This document shows positions 735-61,724 of a stretch of 64,000 nucleotides of DNA, piece after piece; the first letter of the stretch is position 1, and each line of letters opens with the position of its first letter. Source of the stretch: Prostheceraeus crozeri (lineage: Eukaryota; Platyhelminthes; Polycladida; Euryleptidae); contig CAJQUW010009227.1 of NCBI GenBank assembly GCA_907163375.1, positions 248,001 to 312,000 of the forward strand. Reading direction: 5' to 3'. The notes beneath the pieces were generated by a model. That model saw nothing but the letters and a program-made list of their open reading frames with translations, did no database searches and was not told the origin of the DNA. The position numbers and the translations under genes were made by a program.

Positions 735-901
735 ATCCACCAGCACAGAGTCGGATGGGAATTATTATTGAACCAAAGGAGCTTATCAATGGAAATTCGG
801 CGAAAGTGTATTGCATATCTCCTGTCGCCCTTCCAAATCCAACTTTGAAGTGGAATATAATGTCACGAAGCCTTTCCAAAAGTATTGTCAGGATTTCACA
901 A
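735..901 (+). CDS. Unit 1 exon A1: N-terminal half of Ig domain A
   Basis: The acceptor is ttgtttcag and the donor gtaagt; length is 167 nt (phase 1 in, 0 out). It encodes PP linker, IIIEPKELINGNSAKVYC (first Ig cysteine) and the core Trp in LKWN. The following intron (902-2678) holds nothing I recognise. Confidence 0.85.
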
Positions 902-2678
902 GTAAGTGGTTGTCGCATTATCGGAGTCAAGTGTTTTGTTGTATGTTTCTGTCATGCCGTGCTATATCGCAATTGTGAAGATTTTGTCTCTAAAAAAAGT
1001 CGATCCGAAAAGGGGATTGATGAACAGATCTAAGTTTCTCACAATATATAGACACACTATTTGATTTTTATTTGATTTTATCTATCAGAATGTGAAAATT
1101 TTTAGCTCGATATGATTTTCAATAGAAAAAACGTAATATTTGTCTTAGCACCATCCTGAAGTGTCAAATTTTACGAAAATTATTTGAGATACAACTTCAT
1201 GATGGTTTATTCAAGGAAAGATTTGCAAAGTTGTGCTTATCGCTACTGAAAGTCAACTATTATATTGTCAACTTTCAGATGAGTCGCTGTGAAAGAGCAC
1301 ATCAAGCCAACATAGCTGCTTTGAAAGTGTTAATGACCGCGAGCATCAAATGAGACGCAACAGGCTTTCTTGCGATGTAGTAAAAGTGCTGATATTCAAT
1401 TTCAAGTAATCGACTATTTCCATAATAATCGAAGTGAAGGCATTTCGAGGGAGAAGAATATGATTTGTATGGAAGAAAGAAATTAAGAAACTACTAATAA
1501 GTAGAATGGAGAGAGCAATAAGTTGAAATCGGTCTAAAAATATGTCAAGTGACACGGAATGCAAGTTTTCATTCAAGTTTTCGATTTATTTTCATGATGG
1601 TTGGCTTTTATACATGTATGCATGTTTTCAGCTGCATTAAGCTCCTGAAAATTTTGATGTGCAGGGAAGTAAAACTTACGTACGCGTTTTCAAATGTAAA
1701 AAATAAAATTCACTGCTGCAATTATTTTTTTGCATTTAATTTTTGCAACCTCACAATTAATGTTATGTTTCTCATTAGTGGATGACAGACTTCGCAACAC
1801 GTCCATGCGTTGGGCATTTTAGGTGATAAGTGGCAACTTAAATTTTTATATATATATTTGTCAACAAAAAATGATCAAGTCTCGTTAATACATACCTTCC
1901 ACTATCTCAAATTTCTGAATCGAATACTCGGAAAATGCGAAAAATTTTGACAAGAAGCACATTCTTCAGTCTTTTCCTCCACTTTATTCTAAATTGTATT
2001 ATGAGCAATTGCTAGCAGGAAGATACAATCCTTGCCTTTCTTTAATCAGGGATATTCTTATCTGCCAGTTTGACTAGAATAAAATTGTAATAAAATATTG
2101 TGGACATTTCACCCAGCTCTTCTTAGAGAAATAAATGTTTTTAATATAAGTACAAAGTTTGTGGAAAATACGGTGACAACTTTTTCAATATTTGAGAATA
2201 ACGTCCTTGAAATATGTAGCCCTGCATGCTGCGTAGAATTAAATTCAATATTTAAATTTCAAAGCATTTTCATATTGGAAATTTGCTGCGCAATTTTTAT
2301 CTATCTTCTCATTTGGAACGAATGAATCAATCTTGATGATAGAAGTTTTTAGATATTTTAGATGTCTCATTTTCTCTGAGGAGGGGTACGTTGAAAATGT
2401 CTACGGTAGGGCTTCATACCCTCTCCATCACACCCTTTGCCGTGTCCTGGACAATTTGCTGCCATTTCAATCAGTCATTGGCTTTCTCCACCAACCTTGC
2501 GACTTTAGATGCACCTTATCCAGTTATTTTCAAAAGCCTGCATCATCATTTGTTGCTGTGTTAGTGCCGTCTATGATAGATAACATTTGATAATATTTCA
2601 TGTCCATTATAACTGAAATCTTGGGAAGACTTGATCAACACTAAATTTCGCTGATCATTTTTTAATGTCTCCTTTCAG

Positions 2679-2835
2679 ATTGAAAAATATGAAAATAATA
2701 CGGATCTGGTTGTCGCAGCCTTTAAAATTCCAGCTCTCAAGCCAGAATGGAATGAAAAAGAAATTCGATGCACCGTGGCGCACGAGCTGTTACCAGACAA
2801 TGCAGTCACCATGAACTCCCAACTAGATGTGAATT
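2679..2835 (+). CDS. Unit 1 exon A2: C-terminal half of Ig domain A
   Basis: Acceptor cctttcag, donor gtaagt, 157 nt, phase 0 in and 1 out. It encodes YENNTD (N-glycosylation sequon), EWNEKEIRC (second Ig cysteine) and the AHELLP segment typical of A2 exons. Nothing was seen in the following intron (2836-3511). Confidence 0.85.
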
Positions 2836-3511
2836 GTAAGTAAACTACTCGTATAAGGCATGTTAGATAGTTAATAGCTTTAGAAAAACCTCTATTTGGT
2901 AAAAGTATACCAAGGCGATTATTGGCAGTCACACCTCTCATATTGCACCTCGCCTATTGGAGGAAATAGCAGCTATTCAGGTCTGTTTCAATTTTTCAAC
3001 TTAAGATGCAACTCAATATTTAATTCTTATATTTACATTGTGTTTGCAAAAAGCAGCATTTATTGATTAATACAGGCGCACTAACTTAGGCGACATGTCA
3101 GTAGCATGCTGAAAGTAGTATATAATAAACCCATATTTAGCACCAATGTCATGAGTTGTCACTCCAATAGATTAAATCCCACAATAAACTTACGCCAGCG
3201 ATTTTGTGTGAGCACACGCTAAGCCCAAATTGCTTTAAGTTCTTTGTCTCCACAAATGATCTTGCCTGAGTGCTAGATCGCGAGACCGACTTTCAGAAAA
3301 AGGCAGAAATTTACTATTATTTAATGTTGTATTACAAGCGTGAAATTCAGATTTGATTTCAATTTGTCGATTTGATAACATGTTCAGGCATTTTGCAGCA
3401 CTCTGATGTAATAACTTCAATTTTAGTGCGCATTATAAGTAGTAACAGAAGCAACGAAATAATGAAAATTGAATCCTTATTTAAAACTGCATTTTTCAAT
3501 CTCGCATTTAG

Positions 3512-3693
3512 ATCCTCCTATTACGACAAACATGAAATTGGAAGGAAGTTCTGTTCTGGTGGAGGATGCGAAATCAACGTTCGTGTGCAGCATTTCTGAG
3601 TCCAATCCAACATCCGCTATTTCTTGGTATATTTACAACACTTCATCAAAGTCTAACGAGACAGTGGAATCTTATGGAAAAGTAACGACCGAA
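3512..3693 (+). CDS. Unit 1 exon B1: N-terminal half of Ig domain B
   Basis: Acceptor gcatttag, donor gtgagt, 182 nt. It encodes a PP linker, VLVEDAKSTFVC (first cysteine), SESNPTSAISW (C2-type NP...W motif) and YNTSS, a sequon present at this site in every B1. Apart from one TAGGCCTA palindrome (4505-4512), the next intron (3694-5022) shows nothing. Confidence 0.86.
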
Positions 3694-5022: not shown

Positions 5023-5179
5023 ACTTTCAGCGGCAAAACCTTCCGTGGTATGGGCGTCCGAAGTACTTTTCAAATGATGCGGGTAAAGAGGAATATGAAC
5101 GCATTTAGAGTGTTTTGTGTGGTTTCACAAAAGCTGCTTTCTCGAAACATCAGTAAAGCGCTCGTCCTTCGTGTGAAAT
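5023..5179 (+). CDS. Unit 1 exon B2: C-terminal half of Ig domain B
   Basis: Acceptor attttccag, donor gtgagt. At 157 nt it is one codon longer than the other B2 exons. It encodes RSTFQMMRVKRNMNAF, VFCVVSQ with the second cysteine, RNIS sequon and the closing LRVK that becomes VKYPP across the intron. Nothing was seen in the intron to 6042. Confidence 0.86.
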
Positions 5180-6042: not shown

Positions 6043-6209
6043 ATCCACCAAATGTGAAAGAAATGAAGATAATGATTGAACCAGAGGAACTGGAAGCTGG
6101 TAAAGAAGCCCGCATATTTTGCATTTCTCCGATATCTATTCCTGAACCAAATTTGAAATGGGAGATTCCATTACAATCATTGCAAGACGCCAGCGACCCC
6201 ATCACGGAG
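6043..6209 (+). CDS. Unit 2 exon A1: N-terminal half of Ig domain A
   Basis: Acceptor aaattcag, donor gtaagt, 167 nt. It encodes KIMIEPEELEAGKEARIFC and the core Trp in LKWEI. Unlike most A1 exons, the sequon after the Trp is lost (WEIP). Nothing was seen in intron 6210-6980. Confidence 0.86.
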
Positions 6210-6980: not shown

Positions 6981-7137
6981 CCAAGCCAATTCAAGAATGA
7001 GACTGGTTTGGTAGTTACTGGTCTAAAGATCCCTCATCTTAAGTCAATGTGGAATAATAAAGACGTTCGATGTGTAATTTCTCATGAATTGCTGCCGAAA
7101 CAAGCTGTGGAATTAAAAACAAAGCTCGGAATATTTT
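6981..7137 (+). CDS. Unit 2 exon A2: C-terminal half of Ig domain A
   Basis: Acceptor cttttcag, donor gtgagt, 157 nt. It encodes FKNETG (sequon), MWNNKDVRC (second cysteine) and SHELLPKQ. Nothing was seen in intron 7138-7791. Confidence 0.86.
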
Positions 7138-7791: not shown

Positions 7792-7973
7792 TCCCGCCAG
7801 ATACACGAATGATTGATTTGACTGGAAATTCGGTACTGGTAGAAGGTATAGAATCATCATTTGCCTGCAACGTTCCTGAAGCAAATACTATCTCTGAAGT
7901 GAAATGGTTGTTGAAAAATACTTCCTCTAATACAGAGGAAGCCATTGAGAAATATGGACAAGTGTCCAATGAG
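7792..7973 (+). CDS. Unit 2 exon B1: N-terminal half of Ig domain B
   Basis: Acceptor aacttgcag, donor gtgagt, 182 nt. The linker codon reads F-P-P. It encodes VLVEGIESSFAC, PEANTISEVKW and KNTSS. The intron 7974-9412 contains a palindromic SINE tail (8388-8568) and a minus-strand SINE (8705-8828). Confidence 0.86.
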
Positions 7974-8568: not shown

Positions 8569-8704
8569 TAATATCATGTTTCTGATCATCAATGTATGCG
8601 AAAATGTGGAAACTGGAAGCGACCATTCCTTAGGAATAGTTGTTATGGCAACGAGTGACCAGAAGTAATATTGAATATCGAAAGAGAATGACAGCTATTA
8701 AGTC

Positions 8705-9412: not shown

Positions 9413-9566
9413 ATGAAGAAAGAAAAATATGGAGGTTTGAGATTGAGAAGCACATTTCTCTTTAATCGTGTTAAAAGAGACATGAATGGATTTCAACTGA
9501 CTTGTCTCGTTTCACAAAGGCAACTGTCACAGAATGTCACCAAAGAAGTTATCCTTCGGGTGAAAT
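9413..9566 (+). CDS. Unit 2 exon B2: C-terminal half of Ig domain B
   Basis: Acceptor aaatttcag, donor gtaagt, 154 nt. It encodes YGGLRLRSTF, NRVKRDMNGF, TCLVSQRQLSQNVTKE (cysteine and sequon) and LRVK. Nothing was recognised in the 2.3-kb intron to 11903. Confidence 0.86.
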
Positions 9567-11903: not shown

Positions 11904-12070
11904 ATCCACCAGGCAATGATGGAATGTTTATCAAAATCCAACCAAGTATACTAGAGTCCGGAAAGCCAGCGAAAATGTTTTGTGTGGCTCCAAAATCCAT
12001 TCCTCTTCCGGTGTTGACATGGAATATGTCTTCATCGATGCTGCTGAAACGTTTGAAACTTTCATCAGAC
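11904..12070 (+). CDS. Unit 3 exon A1: N-terminal half of Ig domain A
   Basis: Acceptor ttctacag, donor gtaagt, 167 nt. It encodes FIKIQPSILESGKPAKMFC, PKSIPLPVLTW and the sequon NMSS directly after the core Trp. Only a small hairpin near 12985 is visible in intron 12071-13211. Confidence 0.86.
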
Positions 12071-13211: not shown

Positions 13212-13368
13212 ACCGGACCATATGAAAATAACACTGCCATAGTCATCACCGCTGCTGAGGTAACCCAATTAACTCCAGAATGGAATATGGAGGATATTCG
13301 ATGCAAAATCTCACATGAATTGTTGACAAATAATGCAACTCAGTTGAAGTCCAAATTGAACGTTCTAT
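13212..13368 (+). CDS. Unit 3 exon A2: C-terminal half of Ig domain A
   Basis: Acceptor catttcag, donor gtacgt, 157 nt. It encodes YENNTA (sequon), EWNMEDIRC with the second cysteine, and SHELLTNN. Nothing was seen in the short intron 13369-13772. Confidence 0.86.
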
Positions 13369-13772: not shown

Positions 13773-13954
13773 ATCCACCCGAAATGTCAATGTTTAAACT
13801 GACTGGAAGTTCCGTATTGGTGGAGGACATAAAGGCCAAATTCGAATGCGATGTTCCGGAAGCTAACCCAGTGGCCACTGTTAAATGGTCTTTGCTCAAT
13901 GTCTCATCGAGCTCCGAAGAGACAATTGAAGACTATGGTCGCGTTATAACAAAG
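13773..13954 (+). CDS. Unit 3 exon B1: N-terminal half of Ig domain B
   Basis: Acceptor atttgcag, donor gtgaga, 182 nt. It encodes VLVEDIKAKFEC, PEANPVATVKW and the LNVSS sequon. The following intron is the shortest in the array (188 nt). Confidence 0.87.
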
Positions 13955-14142
13955 GTGAGATGCCTTGCGAGAGTAAGTTTTCAAAAAATGAATGCAAGCT
14001 AGAGCGGGAAATAAATGAGAAAGTGATCAACCGCTCTTGAAGAAATGTATGTATGTACATTGTATATGACACTCAGATGCACCTGTATGTAATTTGTCTG
14101 GCAAAGATGATGACTAAATTTGATCGCTGTTTCATTTTGCAG

Positions 14143-14296
14143 ATGCACAAAGGAAAGTTTAAAGGACAATTCCTCAAAAGCACATTTCATTTGTCGCATG
14201 TGAAGAGAGCTATGAACGGCTTCAAGGTGATATGCACTGTTTCTCAAAGGCAGCTATCTCAGAACTACAGCAAGGATATCACCCTCGAAGTTAAAT
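14143..14296 (+). CDS. Unit 3 exon B2: C-terminal half of Ig domain B
   Basis: Acceptor attttgcag, donor gtaagt, 154 nt. It encodes LKSTFHLSHVKRAMNGF, ICTVSQRQLSQNYSK (cysteine, sequon) and LEVK. The 2.9-kb intron to 17228 holds a hairpin MITE and two SINE remnants. Confidence 0.86.
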
Positions 14297-14754: not shown

Positions 14755-14764
14755 TTTTATCATC

Positions 14765-17228: not shown

Positions 17229-17395
17229 ACGCCCCTGATAATGAGAACATGTTCATCAAGATTGAGCCGACAAAGCTCATCTCAGGACAATCAGCAAAAT
17301 TATTCTGCGTGGCCCCAATCTCCATCCCACCTCCAGTCATGAAATGGAACATTTCTATGGAAAGTCTACGTAGCAGAATCAAGCCTGTATCAAAT
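17229..17395 (+). CDS. Unit 4 exon A1: N-terminal half of Ig domain A
   Basis: Acceptor cttttcag, donor gtaagt, 167 nt; the linker becomes Y-A-P. It encodes FIKIEPTKLISGQSAKLFC, PISIPPPVMKW and the sequon NIS after the core Trp. Its 4.2-kb intron (17396-21607) contains a 994-bp inverted-repeat element and a dead mariner. Confidence 0.86.
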
Positions 17396-19182: not shown

Positions 19183-20374
19183 TTGATCATGAATAAGTGG
19201 ACTAGTCAACAGCGCTCTCAAATTGTTGAACTGTTTTTTGTTAACAACCGGTCTATTTTTGAGGCTCAGAGAGCTTATCACCGGTTGAACAAGTCACAAA
19301 AGCTCCGTCTGAACATGTTATTCGTCAATGTGTTCCACGTTTTCGAGAGTTTGGAAATGTTCAGGACAAAGATCGATCAGGCAGACCAAAAACATCTCGC
19401 AGCGCATCGTTCATTGAGACAGTGAGAAGATGCTGTCAGAAGTCCTCGCAAGTCAGTGAAACGACGTTCCGTAGAGCTTCAGATATCTGAAACATCTTTG
19501 AGAAGAATCTTAAAAGATGACTTATTTTGCTAGCCATATAAGGTACAGATTATACAGAGCGTCTCTTTAAGTGACTTTGAAGCGAGATTACGCTATGCGA
19601 GGCGTTTTGTTGAATTTTTTGGTAGGGAGGACAATCTCACTTCACGGATAATGACTGACGAACCACATTTCAACTTGTGTGGATTTGTGAACAAGCACAA
19701 TTATCGTTTTTTGTGCGTCGAAAGATAAATTAATTTCATTTCCTTTAATCAAAATGTCATCTAAATCTTTCTTTAAAAGTTCAGTTAATAATGCTAGAAA
19801 TTATCGTTTTTTGATCTTCCGAAAATCCTCAAGTAATTCACCAGCGACCCCTACATCCTAAGAAGGTAACAGTTTGGTGTGGAATTATGCACGACTGTAT
19901 TGTGAGACCATACAGTACATTTTCGAAGATGGCAATGGAAAAGCAGTCACAATAGATGGTTTAAAGTACCGAGAAATGATAAGGTCGTTCCTGATACCGA
20001 CAATTAAGACATTGCCAAATCAAGCTGCTCTATGGTTTCAGCAAGATGGTGCCACGTGCCACAGTGCTAATGAGACATTAAAACTTTTACAGGAAACTTT
20101 TCAGCATCGCATTATTTCCCGAGGATGTGAGCTCTCCTGGTCTCCGAGATCCACAGATTTGTCTCCAGATTTTTGTCTTTGGGGATATTTAAAAGAGAGA
20201 GTGTACGCTTCAAAACCGAGAGCCACAAGTGCTCTGAAAGAAAATATACGAAATGAAATCCAGAAAATAAGCCGGCAAACTGTGAGACATGTGATGATGA
20301 GTGCTGTAAAGAGGGCACAATCTTGTATCATGCATCAAGGTGCTCATTTACGTGATGTAATTTTCCATACATAA
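19183..20374 (+). pseudogene. Mariner transposase pseudogene (DD41D-like)
   Basis: The N-terminal piece (19183-19425) starts MNKWTSQQRSQIVELFF, the helix-turn-helix entry of mariner transposases. A frameshifted middle part carries SLRRILKDD, the region of the first catalytic Asp (TDEPHF) and a GFVNKHNYRF motif. The C-terminal piece (to 20374) has FQQDGATCH with the second catalytic Asp and SPDFCLWGYLK with the third, 40 residues apart. That spacing is near that of DD41D-type mariners, not the 34 of classical ones. An internal stop, several shifts and an insertion at 19714-19813 make it non-functional. Confidence 0.8.
19699..19813. repeat. 15-bp direct repeat flanking an 85-bp insertion in the transposase
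   Basis: The word aattatcgttttttg occurs at 19699-19713 and again at 19799-19813. The 85 bases between them interrupt transposase homology. This looks like a small insertion with a target duplication, or a local tandem duplication. Confidence 0.5.
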
Positions 20375-21607: not shown

Positions 21608-21764
21608 ATTGGACAATACGAGAACGATACAAATGTGGTTGTATCAGCAATTGAAATTCCCAAACTGCAACCACAATGGAACACAAAGAGCGTTGGTTGT
21701 GATGTATCGCATGAACTGCTTCCAAATAATATTGTCCACTTAGTGTCAAGGCTTCCTATTTTGT
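21608..21764 (+). CDS. Unit 4 exon A2: C-terminal half of Ig domain A
   Basis: Acceptor atttgcag, donor gtaagt, 157 nt. It encodes YENDTN (sequon), QWNTKSVGC with the second cysteine, and SHELLPNN. It differs from the unit 5 A2 exon at only 7 of 157 bases by my count. Nothing firm was recognised in intron 21765-23669. Confidence 0.88.
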
Positions 21765-23669: not shown

Positions 23670-23851
23670 ATCCTCCAGAAGCCAAAGGTCTAGAACTGAC
23701 TGGATCACCTGTCTTGGTTGAAGATATCAAGTCCACATTTGTGTGCACTGTCCCTGAAGCGAATCCTGTGTCGAGTGTGACATGGTTTCTTCGAAACGTC
23801 TCAATGAACAGCGATGAAATTCTGAATGACTATGGCAACGCCAAAATGCAA
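23670..23851 (+). CDS. Unit 4 exon B1: N-terminal half of Ig domain B
   Basis: Acceptor cttcacag, donor gtaagt, 182 nt. It encodes VLVEDIKSTFVC, PEANPVSSVTW and RNVS. It differs from the unit 5 copy at 28341-28522 at about 4 of 182 bases, and similarity continues into the upstream intron (gaatttggaaatg, caatagctg). Nothing else was seen in intron 23852-24371. Confidence 0.88.
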
Positions 23852-24371: not shown

Positions 24372-24525
24372 ATCATCAAAGGCAAAAATGGAGGACTCGG
24401 TTTGAGAAGCACTTTCACATTGGTTCAAGTAAAGAGAGGTATGACAGGCTTCAAGCTGTCATGCGTCGTTTCACAACAACAACTATCTCAAAACTTGAGC
24501 AAAGAAGTCTCTCTTCGCGTGAAAT
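24372..24525 (+). CDS. Unit 4 exon B2: C-terminal half of Ig domain B
   Basis: Acceptor gcttacag, donor gtaagc, 154 nt. It encodes LRSTFTLVQVKRGMTGF, SCVVSQQQLSQNLSK and LRVK. It is about 90% identical to the unit 5 B2 exon. A long CT microsatellite starts about 60 bases past its donor, and intron 24526-25380 otherwise shows nothing. Confidence 0.87.
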
Positions 24526-25380: not shown

Positions 25381-25547
25381 ACGTTCCGGAACGACAAGAT
25401 ATGAAAATTGTGATACAGCCAGACATTCTAACTTCAGGTGCTGCTGCAACGGTATTTTGCATTTCGCCAATAGCTTTGCCTCTTCCTATTTTGACATGGA
25501 ACATTTCAACATCAAGTCTGAATAAATCCACTAAGATATTTGATAAA
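25381..25547 (+). CDS. Unit 5 exon A1: N-terminal half of Ig domain A
   Basis: Acceptor ttttttcag, donor gtaagg, 167 nt; the linker becomes Y-V-P. It encodes KIVIQPDILTSGAAATVFC, PIALPLPILTW and sequon NIST. Its closest relative is the unit 6 A1 exon. Intron 25548-27255 carries a long foldback element. Confidence 0.86.
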
Positions 25548-27255: not shown

Positions 27256-27412
27256 ATTGGACAATACGAGAACGATACAAATGTGGTTGTATCAGCAATT
27301 GAAATTCCCAAACTCCAACCTCAATGGAACACAAGGAGCGTTGGTTGTGATGTATCGCATGAACTCCTTCCAAATAATATCGTCCACTTAGTATCAAAGC
27401 TTCCTATTTTGT
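27256..27412 (+). CDS. Unit 5 exon A2: C-terminal half of Ig domain A
   Basis: Acceptor atttgtag, donor gtaagt, 157 nt. It encodes YENDTN, QWNTRSVGC and SHELLPNN, with two amino-acid changes from the unit 4 copy (Lys/Arg exchanges). Apart from T-rich low-complexity DNA near 27717-27780, intron 27413-28340 shows nothing. Confidence 0.88.
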
Positions 27413-28340: not shown

Positions 28341-28522
28341 ATCCTCCAGAAGCCAAAGGTCTAGAACTGACTGGATCACCTGTCTTGGTTGAAGATATCA
28401 AGTCCACATTTGTGTGTACTGTCCCTGAAGCGAATCCTGTGTCGAGTGTGACATGGTTTCTTCGAAACGTCTCAATGAACAGCGATGAAATTCTGGAAGA
28501 CTATGGCAACGTCAAAATGCAA
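28341..28522 (+). CDS. Unit 5 exon B1: N-terminal half of Ig domain B
   Basis: Acceptor cttcacag, donor gtaagc, 182 nt. It is near-identical to unit 4 B1, differing mainly at the end (LEDYGNV instead of LNDYGNA). Cysteine, PEANPVSSVTW and RNVS are all kept. Nothing was seen in intron 28523-29346. Confidence 0.88.
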
Positions 28523-29346: not shown

Positions 29347-29500
29347 ATCATGAAAGGTAAATATGGAGGACTCGGTTTGAGAAGCACTTTCACATTGGTT
29401 CAAGTAAAGAGGGATATGACAGGCCTCAAGTTGACATGCGTCGTTTCACAACAGCAGCTATCTCAAAACTTGAGCAAAGAAGTTGCCATTCGTGTGAAGT
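29347..29500 (+). CDS. Unit 5 exon B2: C-terminal half of Ig domain B
   Basis: Acceptor gctttcag, donor gtaagt, 154 nt. It encodes YGGLGLRSTFTLVQVKRDM, TCVVSQQQLSQNLSK and IRVK. Nothing was seen in intron 29501-30560. Confidence 0.87.
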
Positions 29501-30560: not shown

Positions 30561-30727
30561 ACGTTCCAGAACAGGACGATATGAAAATGGTAATAGAGCC
30601 AAGCCTTCTAGCATCGGGAGCTGCTGCAAGAGTATTTTGCATCTCACCGATCGCCTTTCCTCTGCCAACTTTGACATGGAACATAACATCGTCAAGTCTG
30701 AATGGAGCCATTAAAAGTCTTGATAAG
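30561..30727 (+). CDS. Unit 6 exon A1: N-terminal half of Ig domain A
   Basis: Acceptor attttcag, donor gtatat (weaker than the array norm), 167 nt. It encodes KMVIEPSLLASGAAARVFC, PIAFPLPTLTW and sequon NITS. Nothing was seen in intron 30728-31595. Confidence 0.85.
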
Positions 30728-31595: not shown

Positions 31596-31752
31596 GTTCA
31601 TCAGTACGAAAATGAGACAGACCTAGTTGTGACAGCTCTGGAAATTCCTCTTCTCAAGCCAATTTGGAACAAAGAGGATATTCGATGCATCGTTTCTCAT
31701 GAACTGTTGCCGGAAAAAGATGTGAAACTTCGTACGCAACTTGAAATTTCAT
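31596..31752 (+). CDS. Unit 6 exon A2: C-terminal half of Ig domain A
   Basis: Acceptor atatttcag, donor gtaagt, 157 nt. It encodes YENETD (sequon), IWNKEDIRC and SHELLPEK. The next intron (31753-40860, 9.1 kb) is the longest in the window and holds the antisense lectin-like gene. Its parts 31753-34344 and 38831-40533 hold little else. Confidence 0.86.
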
Positions 31753-35612: not shown

Positions 35613-38472
35613 TGATTTTTTTTTATCATCCTTTCCTCATTCTCATTGTCAATGGTTGCCAGCCTTCCTCCTAATTGATTGCATTTTCGTATCGCTTCAG
35701 CAAAAGTGTATTTACCTCGTATTATTTCAAACCATTTCCATTTTCTCCCATTGCTATATGCGAACACTCTGTTTGAATTTTTGCTAGGTTTTGGCGCTCT
35801 TTTCAAAGCTTGATCAATTGGGATAGTATTTGCAGCGGATATTAACCATGGATTAAATCCACAATGTCTGTTGCATCGACGAGCCACCTTAACATTCACC
35901 TTGCAATTATCCGTTACATATTGCGTTGAACAATTGTAAGCAGTTTCCGCATAGTTTCGTATATCATATCTACAAAAAAAGCCTATGTCATCTTTATACT
36001 TCCAGCTGGCAGTAAAACGTGCTTCGCATTTTCTTACATTTTTTGAAAATCTAGTCATGTTGTGCGAAGAAAAGCAGCTTTCTTTATCACCTTTTTTCGC
36101 CAACTTATTCATAATTTCAACAGTGAGGGAAAATGTTTTTGAAAAGTTGTGGGTAGCAAGGCGTCCACCTCTGAGCTGACACAATGCAAATGCATCAGAG
36201 TAGCTACTTTTAGCCGGAATGAACTGAAGCCAATCTCCAAATTTATTAGCAACACGAGGTTCATTTACATAAAGCTCCTTAACTAATCTGTAAAAGCTGC
36301 AAGCATTGTTAGCATAAGTTTTCTTAATCCACTGTTCATCATTATAATTTTCCACATTGAGGCATCCTTTGTCTTTTACAGATTTCATGTAAAAACACTG
36401 ATGGGATCCGAGCTTGTAATTCTCTAAAATAACGTTGCACTCCTCATGAATATGATGACAATGTTGAAAATATTGCCAATTCGAGTAGCTACTTCCAAAG
36501 ATGTAATTATTCTTGTATTCCAGGGACCATTCATTTGTACCGCGACCCTTTGTAGGTTTTACTGCATGGAGTTTATTTCTTCCATTAATCATCAATTCGT
36601 CGATGTAATTGACACGGGCGTAACCATCTTCCATTGTTTCAATTTTTGATCGATCACATGTTACAAGGAACAAGTTATCATCTCGATGATCCTTCTTCTG
36701 TTGAACTTTATTCCAAGAAATAGTCCAAACTCATCATTGCGATTATAGTCTGTCACTGGATACTTGATAATGGCTGACCAAAATGGTTCTACGATGAAAT
36801 AATTTTGATCGTATTTCATCATGTCACTCAGACACCTAGGCTTTTGTTTGTTTGGTCCAACATACAGAATATATCTTTTGGCACCAATTCCAAGAAACAG
36901 CCAATCATTAGCCGAAATCATTTTCAATTTCACGGTTTCCATTTCATGAAAAAAGTACTCTCGTCCTTCTTTGTCGCAAAACGTTGTTGTCTCAGAAGGA
37001 TAACCAAGATTATTAGGTAAGCATTCTGCTGCAATGGTTGGATACTTTTTCGTAAATTCTGGTTTTACACGACCGCGCCATTGCCAGATGCTTTTTATTG
37101 TACCTAAAAGTACTCTCCGCAAAACATCAGTCACCAACTTGAATTTTATCCATCCAGGTTTTCTAGCCAAATGTAATGACGATATTTTCAAACCGTACGT
37201 GTTCCCATTCGTTGTCTGCTTCCATTTTGTTCCATTGATAATCATTGAGCATTCTTCGAATCCTCCGAACTCAGTTGTATAATTGACAAAATGCTTATCG
37301 ATCAAAATATACAATTTCGTCTCTTTAAGCGGATATTGACATATAGCTCCTATCGTGTAGCTATCCATTGTAGCAGAGTCACAAGGCGTGGGGTAATACC
37401 CCGGATTATCGGAAGTCATAGTGACACAATATCCTGACTCCTTCCTGGCAAAACGTGCACTGTGTTTAGATTTTTCATGTATCCGCTTCCAACGCATTGC
37501 AGAATTTGTTTCCATCCGAGGTCCTACATAGGCCATAGGTGCATAGTACTGTGCGAGTAATAATGCTCGTTGGTATCGATCTGATGGCAAATTTACATAC
37601 TGAACTTCTTTGTAAACTTCTTTCAACATTCGAAATACAAAATGTTCCTCAGCACTTCCTTGAACGATGGCAAGCATACCTCCTTGATTTTGACAGACTT
37701 TAGATGCCTTTTCAAATTTATATGAACCAGGAGTATAGTCAAACCACCGTTCATTTCCCATTGAAAAAGCACTCCAGTCGGGGGTAAATGTGATGGCCTT
37801 GTTAATTCGAACTGTGATAGGATTTTTTCTCCATGAAGGATTGCATTTCACTACCACTGTGATAATGTTGTTGCCTAAGGACTGCAATATCTTGCCGATA
37901 TTGGGTATGCGGATTTTGTCACCATTGCCTTTCAGTTTAGTGCTTTCAATGCTCCACGAAACATTCTTAATATCACAACTGATAAAATCGAATTTGATTC
38001 TATAGTTCGCAATAGTTGGATGATGGCAATGTGCACGGATCATTCCAAGAATGGAACTCCGGTGATAGCTCAAGTGAACGTTTATTGTATGATGAAGAAC
38101 ACGATGTACCCATGTTCTACTGTATTGAGCATTTCCATGTCGGGCAGTGATAGTAAAAGTAATATATCCCTGCAGGTCAGGAACCATACATGCTAAAAAG
38201 GAAGCTGTATTCCCAAAAGTGTGTGGATAGTAATGCTCGGATGTGCTGCTGCTGTACATAGTGAAATTAAAATGGGGAAGAGTGCTACTTATCTGTTTAG
38301 GTTCAACTTCAGCTGCTAACCATATCCACATACCATGCATTTCACAGCCATGTGACAATACAGTGAAATCAATTAATTCGACTGTTGCACTGATGAGTTT
38401 TGCTGAAATTAAGCACTGTCCTTGAAATGAAGCCATCATTATAACTGGTAAAAGAAAAGTGACGTGCGCCAT
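34345..38472 (-). CDS. Nested antisense single-exon gene: secreted protein with four C-type lectin-like domains (two frameshifts)
   Basis: Three long minus-strand reading frames follow one another with almost no gap and together encode about 1375 residues. The start at 38472 begins MAHVTFLLPVIMMASFQGQC, a good signal peptide. Four CTLD entries are recognisable by their aromatic...Y/F-x-x-A...C...GG-x-L-A pattern. No membrane segment was seen, so the product would be secreted. No splice sites are needed. Two single-base shifts (near 36727-36735 and in a nine-A run at 35614-35622) break the frame. They may be assembly errors or true lesions of a pseudogene. It lies wholly inside an intron of the Ig gene, on the opposite strand. 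The family is not recognised beyond CTLD, and ligand binding is unproven. Confidence 0.7.
35609..36733 (-). CDS. Lectin-like gene, segment 2 (CTLD2 and first half of CTLD3)
   Basis: No ATG starts this frame. It continues segment 1 after a one-base shift, running through TISWNKVQQKKD and DDNLFLVTCDRSK. CTLD2 begins GDWLQFIPAKSSYSDAFALC with GGRLAT, is short, and lacks a clear WIG-type core. CTLD3 begins WKWFEIIRGKYTFAEAIRKC with GGRLATID, then runs into the nine-A run where the frame is lost. Confidence 0.68.
36661..38472 (-). CDS. Lectin-like gene, segment 1 (signal peptide, N-terminal region, CTLD1)
   Basis: This is a frame of 603 codons. Residues 1-20 are the signal peptide. Residues 21-235 are an unassigned Cys-containing region; part of it (about 160-210, with NVSWSIES) vaguely resembles a beta-sandwich or REJ-type module. 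CTLD1 spans about 240-380: ERWFDYTPGSYKFEKASKVC, GGMLAIV, YVGPRM (in place of WIGL), MRWKR, and Cys at 349, 364 and 378. Residues 380-585 are unassigned. The last 15-20 residues are probably out of frame, because the next segment's frame is open to about 36735. Confidence 0.7.
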   Translation of the reverse strand: MAHVTFLLPVIMMASFQGQCLISAKLISATVELIDFTVLSHGCEMHGMWIWLAAEVEPKQISSTLPHFNFTMYSSSTSEHYYPHTFGNTASFLACMVPDLQGYITFTITARHGNAQYSRTWVHRVLHHTINVHLSYHRSSILGMIRAHCHHPTIANYRIKFDFISCDIKNVSWSIESTKLKGNGDKIRIPNIGKILQSLGNNIITVVVKCNPSWRKNPITVRINKAITFTPDWSAFSMGNERWFDYTPGSYKFEKASKVCQNQGGMLAIVQGSAEEHFVFRMLKEVYKEVQYVNLPSDRYQRALLLAQYYAPMAYVGPRMETNSAMRWKRIHEKSKHSARFARKESGYCVTMTSDNPGYYPTPCDSATMDSYTIGAICQYPLKETKLYILIDKHFVNYTTEFGGFEECSMIINGTKWKQTTNGNTYGLKISSLHLARKPGWIKFKLVTDVLRRVLLGTIKSIWQWRGRVKPEFTKKYPTIAAECLPNNLGYPSETTTFCDKEGREYFFHEMETVKLKMISANDWLFLGIGAKRYILYVGPNKQKPRCLSDMMKYDQNYFIVEPFWSAIIKYPVTDYNRNDEFGLFLGIKFNRRRIIEMITCSL

Positions 38473-38714
38473 TTTCAGAATATCGTATTCTTCCTCTGGC
38501 TCGATGTTGATATATTGACATTCAGGAATAAAGTTGCAAATCAGTTATATTCAATTCTCCATAGAAATTACTAGCCGAATCTTCCATAGTTACCCCAGGC
38601 AACCCTGATCGTAGACTCAATAGCTATAAACAGATAGCATAGAAGTCGGACATCAAGGCTATCGAAGAGCATCGTGGATAGCAATGATATGTAACAATTG
38701 ACCTCTAACAATCA

Positions 38715-40860: not shown

Positions 40861-41042
40861 TTCCTCCGTATGTGTTTGCTGTCAATATGACCGGGAATAC
40901 TGATCTGGTAGAAGATGTCAAAACCTCGTTTGTGTGCAGTGTTCCAACTTCCAATCCAGTCGCTGAAATCAAGTGGATTCTTCGAAATACTTCAAGCGGA
41001 TCGAATGAAACATTGGATAACTTCGGCCATATTAAAAATCAA
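40861..41042 (+). CDS. Unit 6 exon B1: N-terminal half of Ig domain B
   Basis: Acceptor tctccacag, donor gtaata (non-consensus at +5), 182 nt; the linker becomes F-P-P. It encodes LVEDVKTSFVC, PTSNPVAEIKW and RNTSS. Intron 41043-45156 holds the 1198-bp element and two SINEs; 41043-42650 shows nothing recognisable. Confidence 0.86.
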
Positions 41043-45156: not shown

Positions 45157-45310
45157 GAAGTTGATGGTGCATATGGAGGGCGCAAAATTCAAAGTGTTCT
45201 TGAACTCACTCGCGTGAAAAGAGATATGAATGGTTTCAAACTGGTGTGTGAAGTTTCTCAAACACGTCTATCAGATGTCATTGTAAAAGAGATGGTTCTT
45301 CTCGTTAAAT
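45157..45310 (+). CDS. Unit 6 exon B2: C-terminal half of Ig domain B
   Basis: Acceptor ttctcag, donor gtgagt, 154 nt. It encodes YGGRKIQSVLELTRVKRDMN, VCEVSQTRLS and LLVK. The sequon present in most B2 exons is missing (SDVIVK). Intron 45311-48349 contains a LINE 3' fragment. Confidence 0.85.
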
Positions 45311-48349: not shown

Positions 48350-48516
48350 ACGCTCCTGACGACGAAGACATGTTCATCAAGATTGAGCCGTCCGTGCTAG
48401 AATCTGGAAAATCCGCTCAACTGATTTGTGTGGCTCCGAAATCCATTCCTCCTCCAGTGATGTCCTGGAATATTTCTTCATCAAGTCTTATGAGAAGTGT
48501 AAAGCCTCTGAAGAAA
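48350..48516 (+). CDS. Unit 7 exon A1: N-terminal half of Ig domain A
   Basis: Acceptor atttcacag, donor gtacgt, 167 nt; the linker becomes Y-A-P. It encodes FIKIEPSVLESGKSAQLIC, PKSIPPPVMSW and sequon NISS. Intron 48517-50251 has only a small inverted repeat (cctctggcttc / gaagccagagg, about 49780-49840). Confidence 0.86.
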
Positions 48517-50251: not shown

Positions 50252-50408
50252 GTCAAGCAATTTGAAAATGACACTGAGCGCGTGTTCACCGCTTTGGAGG
50301 TACCAATTCTCAAGCGTCAATGGAATGAAGAGGAGGTCAAATGTAGTGTGACACAGGAATTGATGGATGGCAAATCAGTGGTCCTGAAATCTAAACTGCG
50401 GATACTCT
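50252..50408 (+). CDS. Unit 7 exon A2: C-terminal half of Ig domain A
   Basis: Acceptor ttttccag, donor gtgagt, 157 nt. It encodes FENDTE (sequon), QWNEEEVKC and TQELMDGK in place of the usual SHELLP. Nothing was seen in intron 50409-50918. Confidence 0.86.
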
Positions 50409-50918: not shown

Positions 50919-51100
50919 TCCCGCCTCATATATTTTCAATCAACTTGAATGGAAGCTCACTGCTTGTTGAAGATGTGAAGACTGGATATATTTGTAGTGC
51001 TCCTGAAGCAAATCCTGTGGCCGATATCATCTGGATAATCCAGAATGCAACAGGTCATTCTCAAGAAGAAATTGAGATTTATGGATCGGTTAAAGATGAT
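50919..51100 (+). CDS. Unit 7 exon B1: N-terminal half of Ig domain B
   Basis: Acceptor ttttgcag, donor gtaagt, 182 nt; the linker becomes F-P-P. It encodes LLVEDVKTGYIC, PEANPVADIIW and QNATG. Intron 51101-53208 is largely a piggyBac remnant. Confidence 0.86.
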
Positions 51101-51668: not shown

Positions 51669-51742
51669 GTGGCTCGTAGCTCAGTTGGTTAGAGCACAGG
51701 TCTAGTTAACCTTGGTCGTAGGTTCGAATCCTACCAGCCGCA
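51669..51742 (+). tRNA. tRNA-Thr(AGU)-like gene or tRNA pseudogene
   Basis: It folds as a cloverleaf: acceptor GUGGCUC/CAGCCGC (one C-C mismatch at the base), D arm GCUC-AGTTGGTTA-GAGC, anticodon loop CTAGTTA (anticodon AGU, Thr) on a stem with one C-U mismatch, and T arm GUAGG-TTCGAAT-CCUAC. The A box TAGCTCAGTTGG and B box GGTTCGAATCC are perfect, and a TTTT pol III terminator follows at 51747. An extra base between acceptor and D stems and two mismatches suggest a decayed copy or SINE progenitor. Confidence 0.55.
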
Positions 51743-51954
51743 CATCTTTTGCACGGCAATTTGATCCATCGTTTAATTAATTTCATTGTTGCTAATCACC
51801 TATTTACCGAATCAATTTCAATTTCACTGACATTTCTTAGAGTGGTTTACTTACTTAAAGTTTGACGGTAAACGTATACTATCTTCATTATTTTTACATC
51901 TGGAGTGATTCAAAGTACACACAATTGGAAATGCAAGCGTCTTTACTTACTTCA

Positions 51955-53208: not shown

Positions 53209-53362
53209 AAAATGAAAGGGGCCTATGGAGGACAGTCAATCAGAAGTGTCTTCAATCTTACCCGAGTAAAAAGAGACATGAACAATTACAAAGTGGTCTG
53301 TGTTGTCTCTCAGAGACAGCTCTCAATGAAAGTCAGCAAAGAAATCAGTCTACGAGTAAAAT
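53209..53362 (+). CDS. Unit 7 exon B2: C-terminal half of Ig domain B
   Basis: Acceptor atttttag, donor gtaagt, 154 nt. It encodes YGGQSIRSVFNLTRVKRDMN, VCVVSQRQLS and LRVK. The usual sequon is replaced by MKVSK, while NLT upstream offers a new one. Intron 53363-54441 contains a full-length SINE. Confidence 0.86.
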
Positions 53363-54441: not shown

Positions 54442-54608
54442 ATCCTCCAGACAACGATGGCATGCTCATCAAAATTGAACCAGAGTCTTTGACAGCAGGA
54501 AATTCCGCCAAATTGTTTTGTATTGCTCCCAAATCAATTCCACCTCCAACACTGAAATGGAAAATTTCATCAACAAGTCTTGCAAACAGTGTGAAACCGC
54601 TAAAGGAT
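54442..54608 (+). CDS. Unit 8 exon A1: N-terminal half of Ig domain A
   Basis: Acceptor tccttcag, donor gtaagt, 167 nt. It encodes LIKIEPESLTAGNSAKLFC, PKSIPPPTLKW and KISS, the sequon lost by an Asn-to-Lys change. Intron 54609-56750 carries a 41-bp minisatellite. Confidence 0.87.
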
Positions 54609-54830: not shown

Positions 54831-55300
54831 GTTGGCCAAGAAAAATACATCGTGAACTGCATCCACTGCCTGACTGGCTCAGAAAAGCATCCTGAACTGC
54901 ATCCACTGCCTGACTGGCCACAAAAATACATCCTGAACTGCATCCACTGCCTGACTGGCCACGGAAATACATCCTGAACTGCATCCACTGCCTGACTGGC
55001 CAATAAAATACATCTTGAACTGCATCCACTGCCTGATTGGCCAATAAAATACATCCTGAACTGCATCCACTGCCTGATTGGCCAATAAAATACATTTTGA
55101 ACTGCATCCACTGCCTAATTGGCCAATAAAATACATCCTGAACTGCATCCACTGCCTTACTGGCCAAGAAAATACATCCTGAACTGCATCCACTGCCTGA
55201 CTGGCCAATAAAATACATCCTGAACTGCATTCACTGCCTGACTGGCTCAGAAAAGTATTCCGTACAGCGCATGCTCCCTCACTGATTCAGAAAATTACAT
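54831..55300. repeat. 41-bp minisatellite, about ten to eleven copies
   Basis: The unit runs catccactgcctgactggcc followed by an a/t-rich segment and acatcctgaactg, 41 bases. It is regular from about 54850 to 55240 and degenerate at both edges. Because 41 is not a multiple of three and the unit lacks stops on the minus strand, several overlapping minus-strand frames look open. These are artefacts, not genes. Confidence 0.92.
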
Positions 55301-56750: not shown

Positions 56751-56907
56751 GACGAACAATTCCAAAATGAAACAGATTTGCTCATTAACGGGTTGGAAAT
56801 TCCACTCCTGAGATCACGATGGAACAAAGAAGAGGTGAAATGCATAATATCTCAAGAGCTGCTCCCAGACAAAACTGTTGAACTTAATGACATCCTCAAA
56901 ATATCAT
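56751..56907 (+). CDS. Unit 8 exon A2: C-terminal half of Ig domain A
   Basis: Acceptor cactacag, donor gtaagt, 157 nt. It encodes FQNETD (sequon), RWNKEEVKC and SQELLPDK. Nothing was seen in intron 56908-58552. Confidence 0.86.
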
Positions 56908-58552: not shown

Positions 58553-58728
58553 TCCCTCCAAGTGAGTTTAGCATCAATTTGACTGGGAATCCCGTCCTTG
58601 TGGAGGATGAGGTAGCTTCGTTCGTATGCAGCGTTCCTGAAGCCAATCCTGTGTCTGAGATCAAATGGATACTACAGAATGGGTCTTCGATCGAGGCATT
58701 AGAGGAATATGGAGGAGCTACAAGTGAA
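58553..58728 (+). CDS. Unit 8 exon B1: N-terminal half of Ig domain B
   Basis: Acceptor attttag, donor gtgagt, 176 nt, two codons shorter than every other B1. The deletion falls after QNGSS. It encodes VLVEDEVASFVC, PEANPVSEIKW and the QNGSS sequon. Nothing was seen in intron 58729-59669. Confidence 0.86.
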
Positions 58729-59669: not shown

Positions 59670-59823
59670 ATGGGCGCAGGTTTGAATGGAGGACAAAGAA
59701 TCAGAAGTACATTGAAACTGACGCGTGTGAAGAGGAGCATGAATCACTTCAAATTATTATGCGTCGTTTCTCACTTGCAATTGTCGCGAAACATAACCAA
59801 AGAAATTGTCTTGAAAGTAAAGT
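59670..59823 (+). CDS. Unit 8 exon B2: C-terminal half of Ig domain B
   Basis: Acceptor cctctacag, donor gtgagt, 154 nt. It encodes NGGQRIRSTLKLTRVKRSMN, LCVVSHLQLSRNITK (cysteine, sequon) and LKVK. Intron 59824-61557 contains a LINE fragment on the minus strand. Confidence 0.86.
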
Positions 59824-60000
59824 GTGAGTTTACAACTTTAAAATGGAATCTTCGGTCTGGCTTGCCTGCACATACATAACATACATGTGTATACATCAAG
59901 ACATGAATTTTAGGCTAAATTGTTCCGATTGGCCCGATCGGTTAAGCTAGAAATCATGAGCACGATCTAACATTTATGTAGAAGCGGTTTTATCGGCTTC

Positions 60001-60867
60001 ACCAACGCTTTTGAAAATCGTTAGTAGGTTCCCGAATCTTTGATGATATTTTCTTTTCTTGACTTGACTTACTTGACTTAATAACAGGACTTGACGTCTT
60101 GTCAATCCTGGTAATGATCCGTAGACGCAATTCTCCTCCACTGTTGGCGGTTGTCTGCCAGCTCTTCCATATATTTAACCCATTCGGTTCCTGTAGCCAG
60201 CCAGTCACTTGATCTACCGCGATGGTACCTGATGTGGTTCGTCAGGTGCTTGGTCTCTTGATGAAGCCGTCGTTTCCATGCCATCTTCTGTCTGCCCCGT
60301 TTTCGCTGCCAGCCTGTCCGTTGTTCATGGTACCATAGCAGCTGATATGGAATTGGGCTCGAGCCCATTCGAAGAGCGTGACCAAACCAAGTCAAGCGAC
60401 GATGTTTCATAAATTTGGGCACGGTGTCTTTGATGTTAAAATGAGCGTAAATGGAGGCATATGAAATATGGTGTTCGGGACGAAATTTCCCCCAATTGTT
60501 TCAGACAGAGATACTCAAAGCTCCCCAGACTGTTTTCTTGAACTTGTGAGAGTCGCCAGCTTTCACAGCCGTATGTGAAAACTGATCTAATACATGCTGT
60601 GAAGACGCAGCCTTTTGTTTTCGGTGAGACTGAGGGACTGGACCATAAGTTGGCGTTGAAACGTCTGAATACAGCTGCAGCTCTACCAATGCGCCGATTT
60701 AATTCGGTTTCCAAGCAGCCATTTGAAGTGACAGTGGAGCCCAGGTAAACGAATTCATTGACTTTCTCAAGGGGTTCCCCTGCCAGAAAGATGGTGTCTG
60801 GTCTGCTATGAGTGTCAAGAATTTTGCTTTTTCCTGTATTTATTTTAAGGCCGATTTTTCTTTTCAC
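60001..60867 (-). mobile_element. LINE reverse-transcriptase C-terminal fragment, minus strand
   Basis: Two consecutive minus-strand frames, 60867-60436 and 60422-60102, are separated by one frameshift. The first has GLKINTGKSKIL, NEFVYLGSTVTSNG, RRIGRAAAVF and FTYGCESW (end of polymerase and thumb). The second has RRLTWFGHALRM, RGRQKMAWKRRL and QQWRRIA. Both are hallmarks of non-LTR retrotransposons. The catalytic core (FADD box) is missing, so it is 5'-truncated and dead. Confidence 0.75.
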
Positions 60868-61557
60868 ACGCTCAAACTTAAGAAAACGGAATGATTCGAG
60901 AATTTTTCACATTATAACTATACAGAAATAAAATAACACAGCAATAATCCAACATTGGGCTGTTGATCTTTGTCAATCAGCTCCAGTCATGATGACATGC
61001 TCGTGTAATATGTGATTTCTTCTAGCACTGTGCATCCATGTTACTAGTTGTCCGAACACCAAATTATTGAATTCTGAAAGATCATTGCATACCGTCATTT
61101 TACTCATCAAAATTCGTTTATTTGTTGACATGCAATCATTACAATCACTCGAATATAATCTACGGCTGAAAGACAAGAATTATGAGTAAGTATACACGTG
61201 AGTATCTCCCGGTGATTGTTTTATAGATGGAGAGAGTTTCCTTAGTTAGTTGTCAGTAAACTGTACACACTTTATTGAACACTGAAAGTGATTTTTGTTT
61301 GTATGCTTTCGTTTCCTCTCACAAATTCATTTTTACGTGAACAGATCGGTTGCAAACATATAATATACAGATTCTGATTCACACTAGAAGGAGCGTATCA
61401 AATAGAAACTTAGATTGCAAAGTCTTAATTGGAAGCAAGTTTTCAACAACATTTCTTTCAAAATCCTAGTTGTAATCCACATATTGTTTACATAACACAC
61501 GAAGAAAGTGAAATTTCATCAAACTGTGCGACAATTATTATCAATTTTGTATTTTAG

Positions 61558-61724
61558 ATATTCCTGAGAAGGACGGTATGGCAATCAAAATTGAACCTGC
61601 AGAACTGAAATCAGGGAATTCAGCGAGCATATTTTGCATTGCTCCAAAATCAATTCCACCTCCTGTATTGAAATGGAACATTTCGTCAACAAGTCTCAAG
61701 AACAGCGTGAGGCCTTTGTCGGAT
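61558..61724 (+). CDS. Unit 9 exon A1: N-terminal half of Ig domain A
   Basis: Acceptor attttag, donor gtaagt, 167 nt; the linker becomes Y-I-P. It encodes AIKIEPAELKSGNSASIFC, PKSIPPPVLKW and sequon NISS, closest to unit 8 A1. Its A2 partner is not found before the window ends. Confidence 0.87.

What the first reader, a model, noticed from the sequence alone, without database searches (positions are those of the whole stretch)
735..61724. Giant gene made of a strictly alternating A-B Ig domain array
Thirty-three exons keep the order A1-A2-B1-B2 over 61 kb with near-constant exon lengths (167/157/182/154) and phases (1-0, 0-1). Every Ig domain, and every A-B pair, is a symmetric 1-1 module that can be gained or lost without breaking the frame. 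At least 17 Ig domains of two subclasses are present and both gene ends are outside the window. I do not recognise the protein. This is the strongest candidate here for an undescribed system, possibly adhesion or self/non-self recognition.
Basis: partly seen in the sequence, partly recalled or inferred. Interest (0 to 1): 0.75.

Follow-up and report, generated by a model that had tools for sequence, protein, structure and literature searches.

The report
Flatworm giant forty-Ig-domain membrane receptor
The window is the middle of one very large animal gene, probably from a marine flatworm, that appears to encode a cell-surface protein with a lectin-like tip on a stalk of about forty immunoglobulin domains, many of them of two alternating kinds; it looks real and undescribed, but what it binds is unknown.

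Summary
All 33 exons are at the stated coordinates, in the order A1-A2-B1-B2, with GT-AG sites, joining phases and no stop in 1815 codons. I followed the array into its contig. One phase-consistent model of 83 exons over 172.8 kb gives 4646 residues without a stop: signal peptide, weak F5/8-C (F-type-lectin-like) head, 41 Ig-like domains, transmembrane helix. A/B alternation is strict for 25 consecutive domains and blurs outside. [quoted passage not shown] Exons of neighbouring modules are up to 98% identical beside largely unrelated introns, best explained by exon-confined gene conversion. Closest solved sequence: SYG-2 (nephrin family), but FN3 was not found in the parts scanned. Best functional analogue: sialoadhesin, a head on a long C2-set stalk. 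I read it as a very long single-pass adhesion or recognition receptor. The ligand, cytoplasmic tail, transcripts and any self/non-self role are untested.

The parts
735..901 (+). exon A1 of Ig domain d08 (class A, first half; phases 1-0)
   Evidence: HMM + splice sites
2679..2835 (+). exon A2 of d08 (class A, second half; 0-1)
3512..3693 (+). exon B1 of d09 (class B, first half; 1-0)
5023..5179 (+). exon B2 of d09 (class B, second half; 0-1; 157 nt)
6043..6209 (+). exon A1 of d10
6981..7137 (+). exon A2 of d10
7792..7973 (+). exon B1 of d11
9413..9566 (+). exon B2 of d11
11904..12070 (+). exon A1 of d12
13212..13368 (+). exon A2 of d12
13773..13954 (+). exon B1 of d13 (a second in-frame donor at 13972 was preferred by the single-exon scoring, the one at 13954 by the chain)
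14143..14296 (+). exon B2 of d13
17229..17395 (+). exon A1 of d14
21608..21764 (+). exon A2 of d14; 95.5% identical to 27256-27412, flanking introns largely unrelated
23670..23851 (+). exon B1 of d15; 97.8% identical to 28341-28522, dS 0.024, flanking introns largely unrelated
24372..24525 (+). exon B2 of d15; 89.6% identical to 29347-29500, dS 0.317
25381..25547 (+). exon A1 of d16; 76.6% identical to 30561-30727, dS 0.729
27256..27412 (+). exon A2 of d16
28341..28522 (+). exon B1 of d17
29347..29500 (+). exon B2 of d17
30561..30727 (+). exon A1 of d18 (weak donor; single-exon scoring preferred a longer exon to 30819, the chain this one)
31596..31752 (+). exon A2 of d18
40861..41042 (+). exon B1 of d19 (after a 9.1-kb intron; weak donor)
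45157..45310 (+). exon B2 of d19
48350..48516 (+). exon A1 of d20
50252..50408 (+). exon A2 of d20
50919..51100 (+). exon B1 of d21
53209..53362 (+). exon B2 of d21
54442..54608 (+). exon A1 of d22
56751..56907 (+). exon A2 of d22
58553..58728 (+). exon B1 of d23 (176 nt)
59670..59823 (+). exon B2 of d23
61558..61724 (+). exon A1 of d24; its A2 half lies outside the window at C7660:312716-312872

Best explanation
[quoted passage not shown] It encodes a very long type I membrane protein: signal peptide, an F5/8-C (F-type-lectin-like) head, 41 Ig-like domains (many of them C2-set-like; a core of strictly alternating subclasses A and B) and one transmembrane helix. Proposed working: the Ig string is a stiff, glycosylated stalk (74 predicted N-glycosylation sequons) that carries the head, and possibly adhesive Ig domains, tens of nanometres from the membrane for adhesion or recognition of another surface, as sialoadhesin does with its V-set head on 16 C2-set domains. 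The array grew by in-frame gain of two-domain units. Its exons are kept alike by gene conversion that reaches only as far as the exons because the introns are no longer homologous. Shown by computation: exons, phases, domain classes, single locus, exon-limited similarity. Inferred: one transcript, membrane topology, stalk function, conversion as the cause, growth by two-domain units, species. Unknown: ligand, tail, expression.
For: 33 window exons verified. Flanking sequence shows more A and B exons. A chain model trained only on the window exons recovers 35 of 46 held-out model exons exactly, scoring 1024.6 against 35.5 on the reverse strand and at most 5.5 on three shuffles. The full model has 83 exons, 0 phase clashes, 0 stops and all GT-AG. 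By simple hydropathy and splice scores the only signal-peptide-like exon on the + strand of 264 kb sits upstream (C7660:187047-187131; the reverse strand has one elsewhere), and the strongest of five transmembrane-like exons on the + strand sits at the end (359746-359854). Three exons between give an F5/8-C match (PF22633 E 1.4e-4, below cut-off) and a PDB match to the fucolectin FBP32 (E 6.7e-4). 36 of 41 Ig-like domains have exactly two Cys. PDB best match for the first 751 residues after the head: SYG-2, E 1.3e-11. A1 and B1 peptides match this gene in 12 of 14 and 14 of 15 genome hits (two of the 14 with E about 0.2); the other hits have E 0.83, 4.0 and 6.7. Exon-limited similarity. Analogue: PMC10027830, abstract.
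Against: No RNA evidence. Several model exons score near or below zero in the chain and are there because the phase demands a partner (213351, 330174, 343254, 346068, 354110), and the transmembrane exon itself scores only 0.6. I dropped two phase 0-0 filler exons from the chain (225623, 241081), replaced one exon (347181) by two, and first dropped the F5/8 exon 195331 and later restored it. Two of the other four transmembrane-like candidates lie inside the gene span (212733, 259641). The head is below Pfam's cut-off and lacks the canonical fucose motif. The transmembrane exon meets a stop ten residues after the helix (IRKKTRFRTK) unless the strong donor is used, and no tail was found. The PDB match is to the nephrin family, adhesion proteins without such a head (recalled); class A also matches antibody Fc domains almost as well.
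Confidence: 0.55

Rival explanations
1. A lineage-specific, enlarged relative of the nephrin/SYG-2/Sticks-and-stones adhesion proteins, acting in tissue (synapse, muscle, excretory filter) adhesion by its Ig domains, with the head incidental.
For: Best solved-structure matches of the A profile, the B profile and the N-terminal Ig region are SYG-2; C2-set_2 passes its cut-off in the parts scanned.
Against: No FN3 at E up to 0.1 in the first 637 or the last 1403 residues of the 4457-residue Ig model (the middle was scanned only as four single domains); 41 rather than about 9 Ig domains (the latter recalled); F5/8-like head; matches are weak and could reflect generic C2-set similarity, since antibody Fc chains follow closely for class A.
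Confidence: 0.2
2. The A-B pairs are alternative cassettes, as in Dscam: different transcripts include different 4-exon units, giving isoform diversity for self/non-self or neural identity.
For: Every A and B domain and A-B pair is phase-symmetric, so any pair can be skipped in frame.
Against: Exons alternate in class rather than standing as like-with-like clusters; self-comparison found no sequence recurring in introns beside the modules that could act as docking/selector elements (a weak test); the exons of one neighbouring pair look homogenised, whereas conversion was not detected in the Dscam arrays studied in PMC3236188 (passages).
Confidence: 0.12
3. A polymorphic immune or allorecognition receptor whose module number or sequence varies between individuals.
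For: Modular, apparently conversion-prone Ig array with a lectin-like head on a single-pass membrane protein; precedent for such genes in other animals is recalled.
Against: Single locus, one assembly only, no polymorphism data; paralogous exons are too diverged (median pS 0.68-0.81) to test positive selection.
Confidence: 0.1
4. The chain joins two or more neighbouring genes, for example a short lectin gene upstream and an Ig gene downstream.
For: Introns up to 11.7 kb; some head and first Ig exons are weakly scored; two further transmembrane-like candidates lie inside the span.
Against: One signal-peptide-like exon on the + strand and the strongest transmembrane-like exon, at opposite ends; all 82 joins are in phase.
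Confidence: 0.12

Closest known systems
Sialoadhesin (Siglec-1/CD169)
   Same: Type I membrane protein; ligand-binding N-terminal head on a long stalk of C2-set Ig domains; 17 Ig domains reach about 33 nm from the membrane (PMC10027830 abstract).
   Different: Vertebrate; head is a V-set Ig, here an F5/8-C-like domain; 17 against 41 Ig-like domains; no evidence of common descent as a family.
SYG-2 / nephrin / Sticks-and-stones (irre cell recognition module)
   Same: C2-set_2-like Ig string on one transmembrane helix; best PDB sequence match.
   Different: No FN3 found in the parts scanned, far more Ig domains, extra head, alternating subclasses.
Dscam / chelicerate sDscam
   Same: Ig domains built of exon halves; tandem exon arrays in one gene (recalled; abstract starts seen).
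   Different: No FN3 found in the parts scanned; alternating rather than clustered classes; exon homogenisation seen here, not detected in the Dscam arrays studied in PMC3236188 (passages).
F-type lectins (furrowed, CG9095, fucolectins)
   Same: Head shows the C-terminal F-type pattern and matches FBP32; F-type domains occur in mosaic proteins with a transmembrane domain (PMC5712786 passages).
   Different: Canonical fucose motif HX24RXDX4(R/K) absent. The passages shown (12 of 15 places) name CCP, C-type lectin, pentraxin, FA58C and other partners; the word immunoglobulin occurs twice in that paper and I did not see those places.
Hemicentin and titin-type proteins (recalled; titin appears only in the listing)
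   Same: Dozens of Ig domains in one polypeptide.
   Different: Secreted or intracellular, with other accessory domains; here a signal peptide and transmembrane exon are modelled.

Membership tests
Ig superfamily | two-Cys Ig fold with Trp core | tested here: met
   C2-set_2 above cut-off for both B domains scanned, Ig_3 below cut-off for one of two A domains scanned; C2-set_2 and Ig_3 above cut-off in both flanking parts scanned; exactly 2 Cys in 36 of 41 domains. By sequence only; no fold was predicted.
Nephrin/SYG-2/Sns | FN3 domain next to the membrane (recalled) | tested here: not met
   No FN3 at E up to 0.1 in the last 1403 residues of the model.
Nephrin/SYG-2/Sns | about 8-9 Ig domains (recalled) | tested here: not met
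   41 Ig-like domains in the model.
Nephrin/SYG-2/Sns | orthology | not testable with these tools
   No general animal protein or genome collection is held.
Dscam | FN3 domains after the Ig domains (recalled) | tested here: not met
   No FN3 in the scanned N- and C-terminal parts.
Dscam | mutually exclusive splicing of exon arrays | not testable with these tools
   No RNA data held.
F-type lectin | F5/8-C/F-type domain above curated cut-off | tested here: inconclusive
   PF22633 22.8 bits against cut-off 27.8; FBP32 E 6.7e-4.
F-type lectin | fucose motif HX24RXDX4(R/K) (PMC5712786 passage) | tested here: not met
   No match with the first spacing allowed to be 18-32, and no RXDX4(R/K) at all.
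Siglec | N-terminal V-set sialic-acid-binding domain | tested here: not met
   The N-terminal head is F5/8-like; the first Ig-like exon (C7660:211101-211364) matched no Pfam family at E up to 1.
Type I membrane receptor | signal peptide and single transmembrane helix | tested here: met
   As sequence features only: the one SP-like exon on the + strand lies upstream, the strongest of five TM-like exons at the end, by simple hydropathy and splice scores. No dedicated predictor was run, and that both belong to one transcript is inferred.

The most novel reading that the evidence does not exclude
A single-copy, roughly 4600-residue flatworm surface receptor with an F-type-lectin-like head on a 41-Ig stalk, in which concerted evolution acts exon by exon while introns drift freely. 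The number and make-up of A-B modules would be the evolving variable, tuning reach or specificity in self/non-self or prey/partner recognition.
Probability: 0.2. Interest if true: 0.75.

Novelty: new variant of a known kind. Interest (0 to 1): 0.52.

Why it matters
If one transcript, this would be an unusually long Ig-based cell-surface receptor with a head/stalk layout like that of sialoadhesin in an unrelated lineage, so the idea that stalk length is selected to reach past a cell's own surface could be compared across phyla. The array also holds a clean natural case of homogenisation that stops at exon edges: exons up to 98% identical beside largely unrelated introns within one gene. Flatworms have few characterised recognition receptors (my knowledge), and this one is a single-locus target that could be tested in a species with transcriptomes (named in PMC9469890).

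Tried and rejected
Rejected: chance exons (controls). Rejected: recent whole-segment duplication of modules d14/d15 to d16/d17. Introns show no similarity beyond shuffles in 4 of 5 comparisons (2 of the 3 introns inside the similar block); the A2-B1 intron keeps one remnant of under 90 bp. Rejected in part: conversion from a cDNA. The 14 intron bases before B1 are identical too, so a genomic template fits better, though splice signals are conserved anyway.

A GENECONV-like run test within each exon class (d05-d28, 66 pairs in each of 4 classes, 1000 column permutations, uncorrected) gave low p for some distant pairs. I treat it as inconclusive; the conversion claim rests. Synonymous differences in B1 differ from B2 (p 0.004) and A1 (p 3e-6) but not clearly from A2 (p 0.086) (on rounded counts).

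Tree of 35 domains (d02-d36; d02 in neither group): A and B labels need 3 changes against 11.6 in shuffles (0 of 500). Neither label is one side of a branch in the tree or in any of 200 bootstrap trees, though well-supported branches alone do not rule that out. Misfits d29 and d30 are long branches, as are six others.

Led nowhere: the cytoplasmic tail; the Pfam C2-set_2 search of the genome, which lists 4 matches elsewhere and none in this gene, probably because each domain is split by an intron; relatives in viral contigs (3 pattern matches, none a relative). Literature: 9 searches. I saw only the listed rows, for example 10 of 31,250 and 12 of 40; no listed title or abstract start described this protein or a polyclad Ig receptor. 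That covers only the held open-access library.
Full report
OBSERVATION. Profile HMMs seeded with a few exons and run on six-frame translations of the window found 33 strong exon hits; no other hit has E below 0.06. All 33 are on the + strand, in the order A1-A2-B1-B2 eight times plus a last A1. Every exon is bounded by AG and GT with phases 1-0, 0-1, 1-0, 0-1. Lengths are constant except one B1 (176) and one B2 (157). The spliced reading frame has 1815 codons and no stop. Within class A the eight domains are 37-67% identical and within class B 43-92%; between classes 14-26%. Both B domains scanned exceed Pfam's C2-set_2 cut-off; of the two A domains scanned, one matches Ig_3 below the cut-off and the other has only a spurious hit.

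EXTENSION. The window is C7660:248001-312000 of a 2,048,925,868-base genome in 14,165 contigs, and the contig is 456,784 bases long. I fetched 100 kb on each side, out of about 393 kb outside the window on this contig. The HMMs found further A and B exons on both sides. An exon-chaining program using splice-site and codon scores with phase compatibility gave one chain across 211-360 kb. After I dropped three exons (195331, 225623, 241081) and replaced one (347181) by two, it gave 79 exons, 4457 codons, no stop, and 41 Ig-like domains followed by a hydrophobic exon. As a control I retrained the scores on the 33 window exons only. The chain over the region then scored 1024.6 with 75 exons and hit 35 of 46 flanking model exons exactly; the reverse strand gave 35.5 (8 exons), and three shuffles gave 5.5 or less. 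Five Ig exons score near or below zero and are placed mainly by phase (213351, 330174, 343254, 346068, 354110), and the transmembrane exon scores 0.6.

ENDS. Upstream, three exons with fitting phases (195331-195549, 204035-204198, 209997-210096, contig coordinates) together resemble an F5/8-C/F-type domain. PF22633 gives E 1.4e-4 over 105 residues, under its cut-off, and the best solved match is the fucolectin FBP32 with E 6.7e-4, including the C-terminal GRY...LT.CEV pattern. Further upstream, the only signal-peptide-like exon on the + strand of 264 kb lies at 187047-187131; the reverse strand has one such exon elsewhere. Downstream, the strongest of five transmembrane-like exons on the + strand of the 264 kb is 359746-359854; the reverse strand has none. 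Two of the weaker four lie inside the gene span (212733, 259641) and are not in the model. The frame of the last exon reads on as IRKKTRFRTK and then a stop unless the strong donor is used, and I found no convincing tail exon. The whole model has 83 exons, 172,808 bases, 4646 residues, no stop, no phase clash and all GT-AG. It has 74 N-glycosylation sequons in the Ig-like domains, and 36 of 41 of these have exactly two Cys.

ALTERNATION. By profile score, 25 of 25 consecutive domains (d04-d28) alternate. Outside, d02 and d03 are both B-like, and d29, d30 and d34 do not score as alternation would predict. In a tree of 35 domains, A and B labels cluster (3 changes against 11.6 in shuffles, 0 of 500), with d29 and d30 misplaced on long branches; neither label is a single side of a branch, though well-supported branches alone do not rule that out. 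The core is thus a homogeneous A-B array set between more diverged Ig domains.

EXON-LIMITED SIMILARITY. Module exons A2, B1, B2 and the following A1 of d14-d16 match those of d16-d18 at 95.5, 97.8, 89.6 and 76.6%, with dS 0.157, 0.024, 0.317 and 0.729. Similarity stops near the splice signals: bases -60 to -21 match at 0.20-0.43 and +9 to +60 at 0.25-0.40, against 0.26 for random stretches of 40 bases (95th percentile 0.375); B2's flanks lie above that percentile. Intron alignments do not exceed shuffles in 4 of 5 comparisons; the fifth keeps one short remnant. Exon pairs of a class are otherwise mostly near saturation (median pS 0.68-0.81). A segmental duplication as recent as dS 0.02 would leave alignable introns, so I infer conversion confined to exons by the loss of intron homology. 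The claim rests on one pair of neighbouring modules and few synonymous sites (35-42 per exon). The register is A2-B1-B2-A1, offset by half a domain from the A-B pair.

COPY NUMBER AND SPECIES. Consensus-like B1 and A1 peptides hit this gene in 14 of 15 and 12 of 14 cases in the whole genome; two of the 14 have E about 0.2, and the hits elsewhere have E 6.7, 0.83 and 4.0. The last C2-like single-exon Ig domain (d40) also occurs once (a second hit has E 3.4). The head exon has two distant relatives on C4812 at 27-29% identity, and three hits with E about 1-3. The mitochondrial COX1 needs AAA=Asn, AGA=Ser, ATA=Ile and TGA=Trp to restore residues that I recall as invariant (code 9), and cox2, cox1, nad6, nad5 and cox3 follow in this order on one strand in the 9 kb read (genes named by recall). 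That points to a flatworm. Size and G+C fit the published PacBio assembly of Prostheceraeus crozieri: 2.07 Gb, G+C 37.64%, 17,074 scaffolds (PMC9469890, part 1 of 4 of the text read); the window's own 2-kb bins have 34-40%. The contig counts differ, so species is an inference. The words immunoglobulin and lectin do not occur in that paper's main text.

WHAT IT WORKS LIKE. Solved-structure matches point to SYG-2 of the nephrin family (E 3.3e-5 for B, 8.8e-6 for A; E 1.3e-11 for the N-terminal Ig region). For class A, however, antibody Fc chains follow closely (E 5.7e-5 on; 444 sequences at E up to 1), so the signal is partly generic. No FN3 domain was found in the parts scanned. So I do not file it there. 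Architecturally the best analogue is sialoadhesin, where 17 Ig domains lift a ligand-binding head about 33 nm from the membrane to escape cis-interactions (PMC10027830, abstract and section list). The head here lacks the F-type fucose motif (motif from passages of PMC5712786; tested), so its ligand cannot be guessed. Dscam-like cassette choice cannot be excluded without RNA. Against it are the alternating classes and the homogenisation, since conversion was not detected in the Dscam arrays studied in PMC3236188 (passages).

VERDICT. A real, very large, single-locus gene with an architecture I did not find described among the rows listed by nine literature searches (open-access library only, listings cut). 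Adhesion or recognition at a distance is the best-supported role. Self/non-self recognition is possible but untested.

Noticed in passing
window 34345-38544, - strand: Three overlapping open frames (425, 373 and 627 aa) with partial C-type lectin matches, each just below Pfam's cut-off, lie antisense inside the 9.1-kb intron between the A2 exon of d18 and the B1 exon of d19. They look like one intronless, frame-broken lectin gene or retrocopy; the search for copies elsewhere did not complete.
   Followed up: partly
window 54833-55246: Minisatellite of about ten 41-bp units, 91% matches, in the intron after the A1 exon of d22.
   Followed up: no
window 19862-20374 (+) and 60102-60906 (-): Fragments that look like a mariner-type transposase and a LINE reverse transcriptase (by recall; Pfam gives only DDE_3 at E 0.041 for the first and nothing convincing for the second).
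   Followed up: no
window 51669-51743: Predicted tRNA-Thr (AGT) gene inside an intron.
   Followed up: no
G000:C1036:118743-212204 and G000:C5762:66627-302157: Two other contigs carry dense runs of Ig_3 matches (best 150 of 708 candidates scored), possibly other large Ig genes or gene clusters.
   Followed up: no
L001 853-2772 (+) and L005 931-2430 (-): Long open frames with LRR, Ig and a peroxidasin-like C-terminal part, by eye. Many other Ig_3 hits lie in open frames of 400-480 aa, so a family with few introns may exist.
   Followed up: partly
L030 (G000:C6227:10001-19000): Mitochondrial genes on a 100.7-kb contig, with COX3 present twice about 1.1 kb apart: a repeated mitochondrial assembly or a nuclear insert.
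   Followed up: partly
G000:C7660 near 356035, 363167 and 384377: A repeated element with a near-identical 50-63 aa frame (KNSRASLADCSEFLQNAP...) in three places.
   Followed up: no
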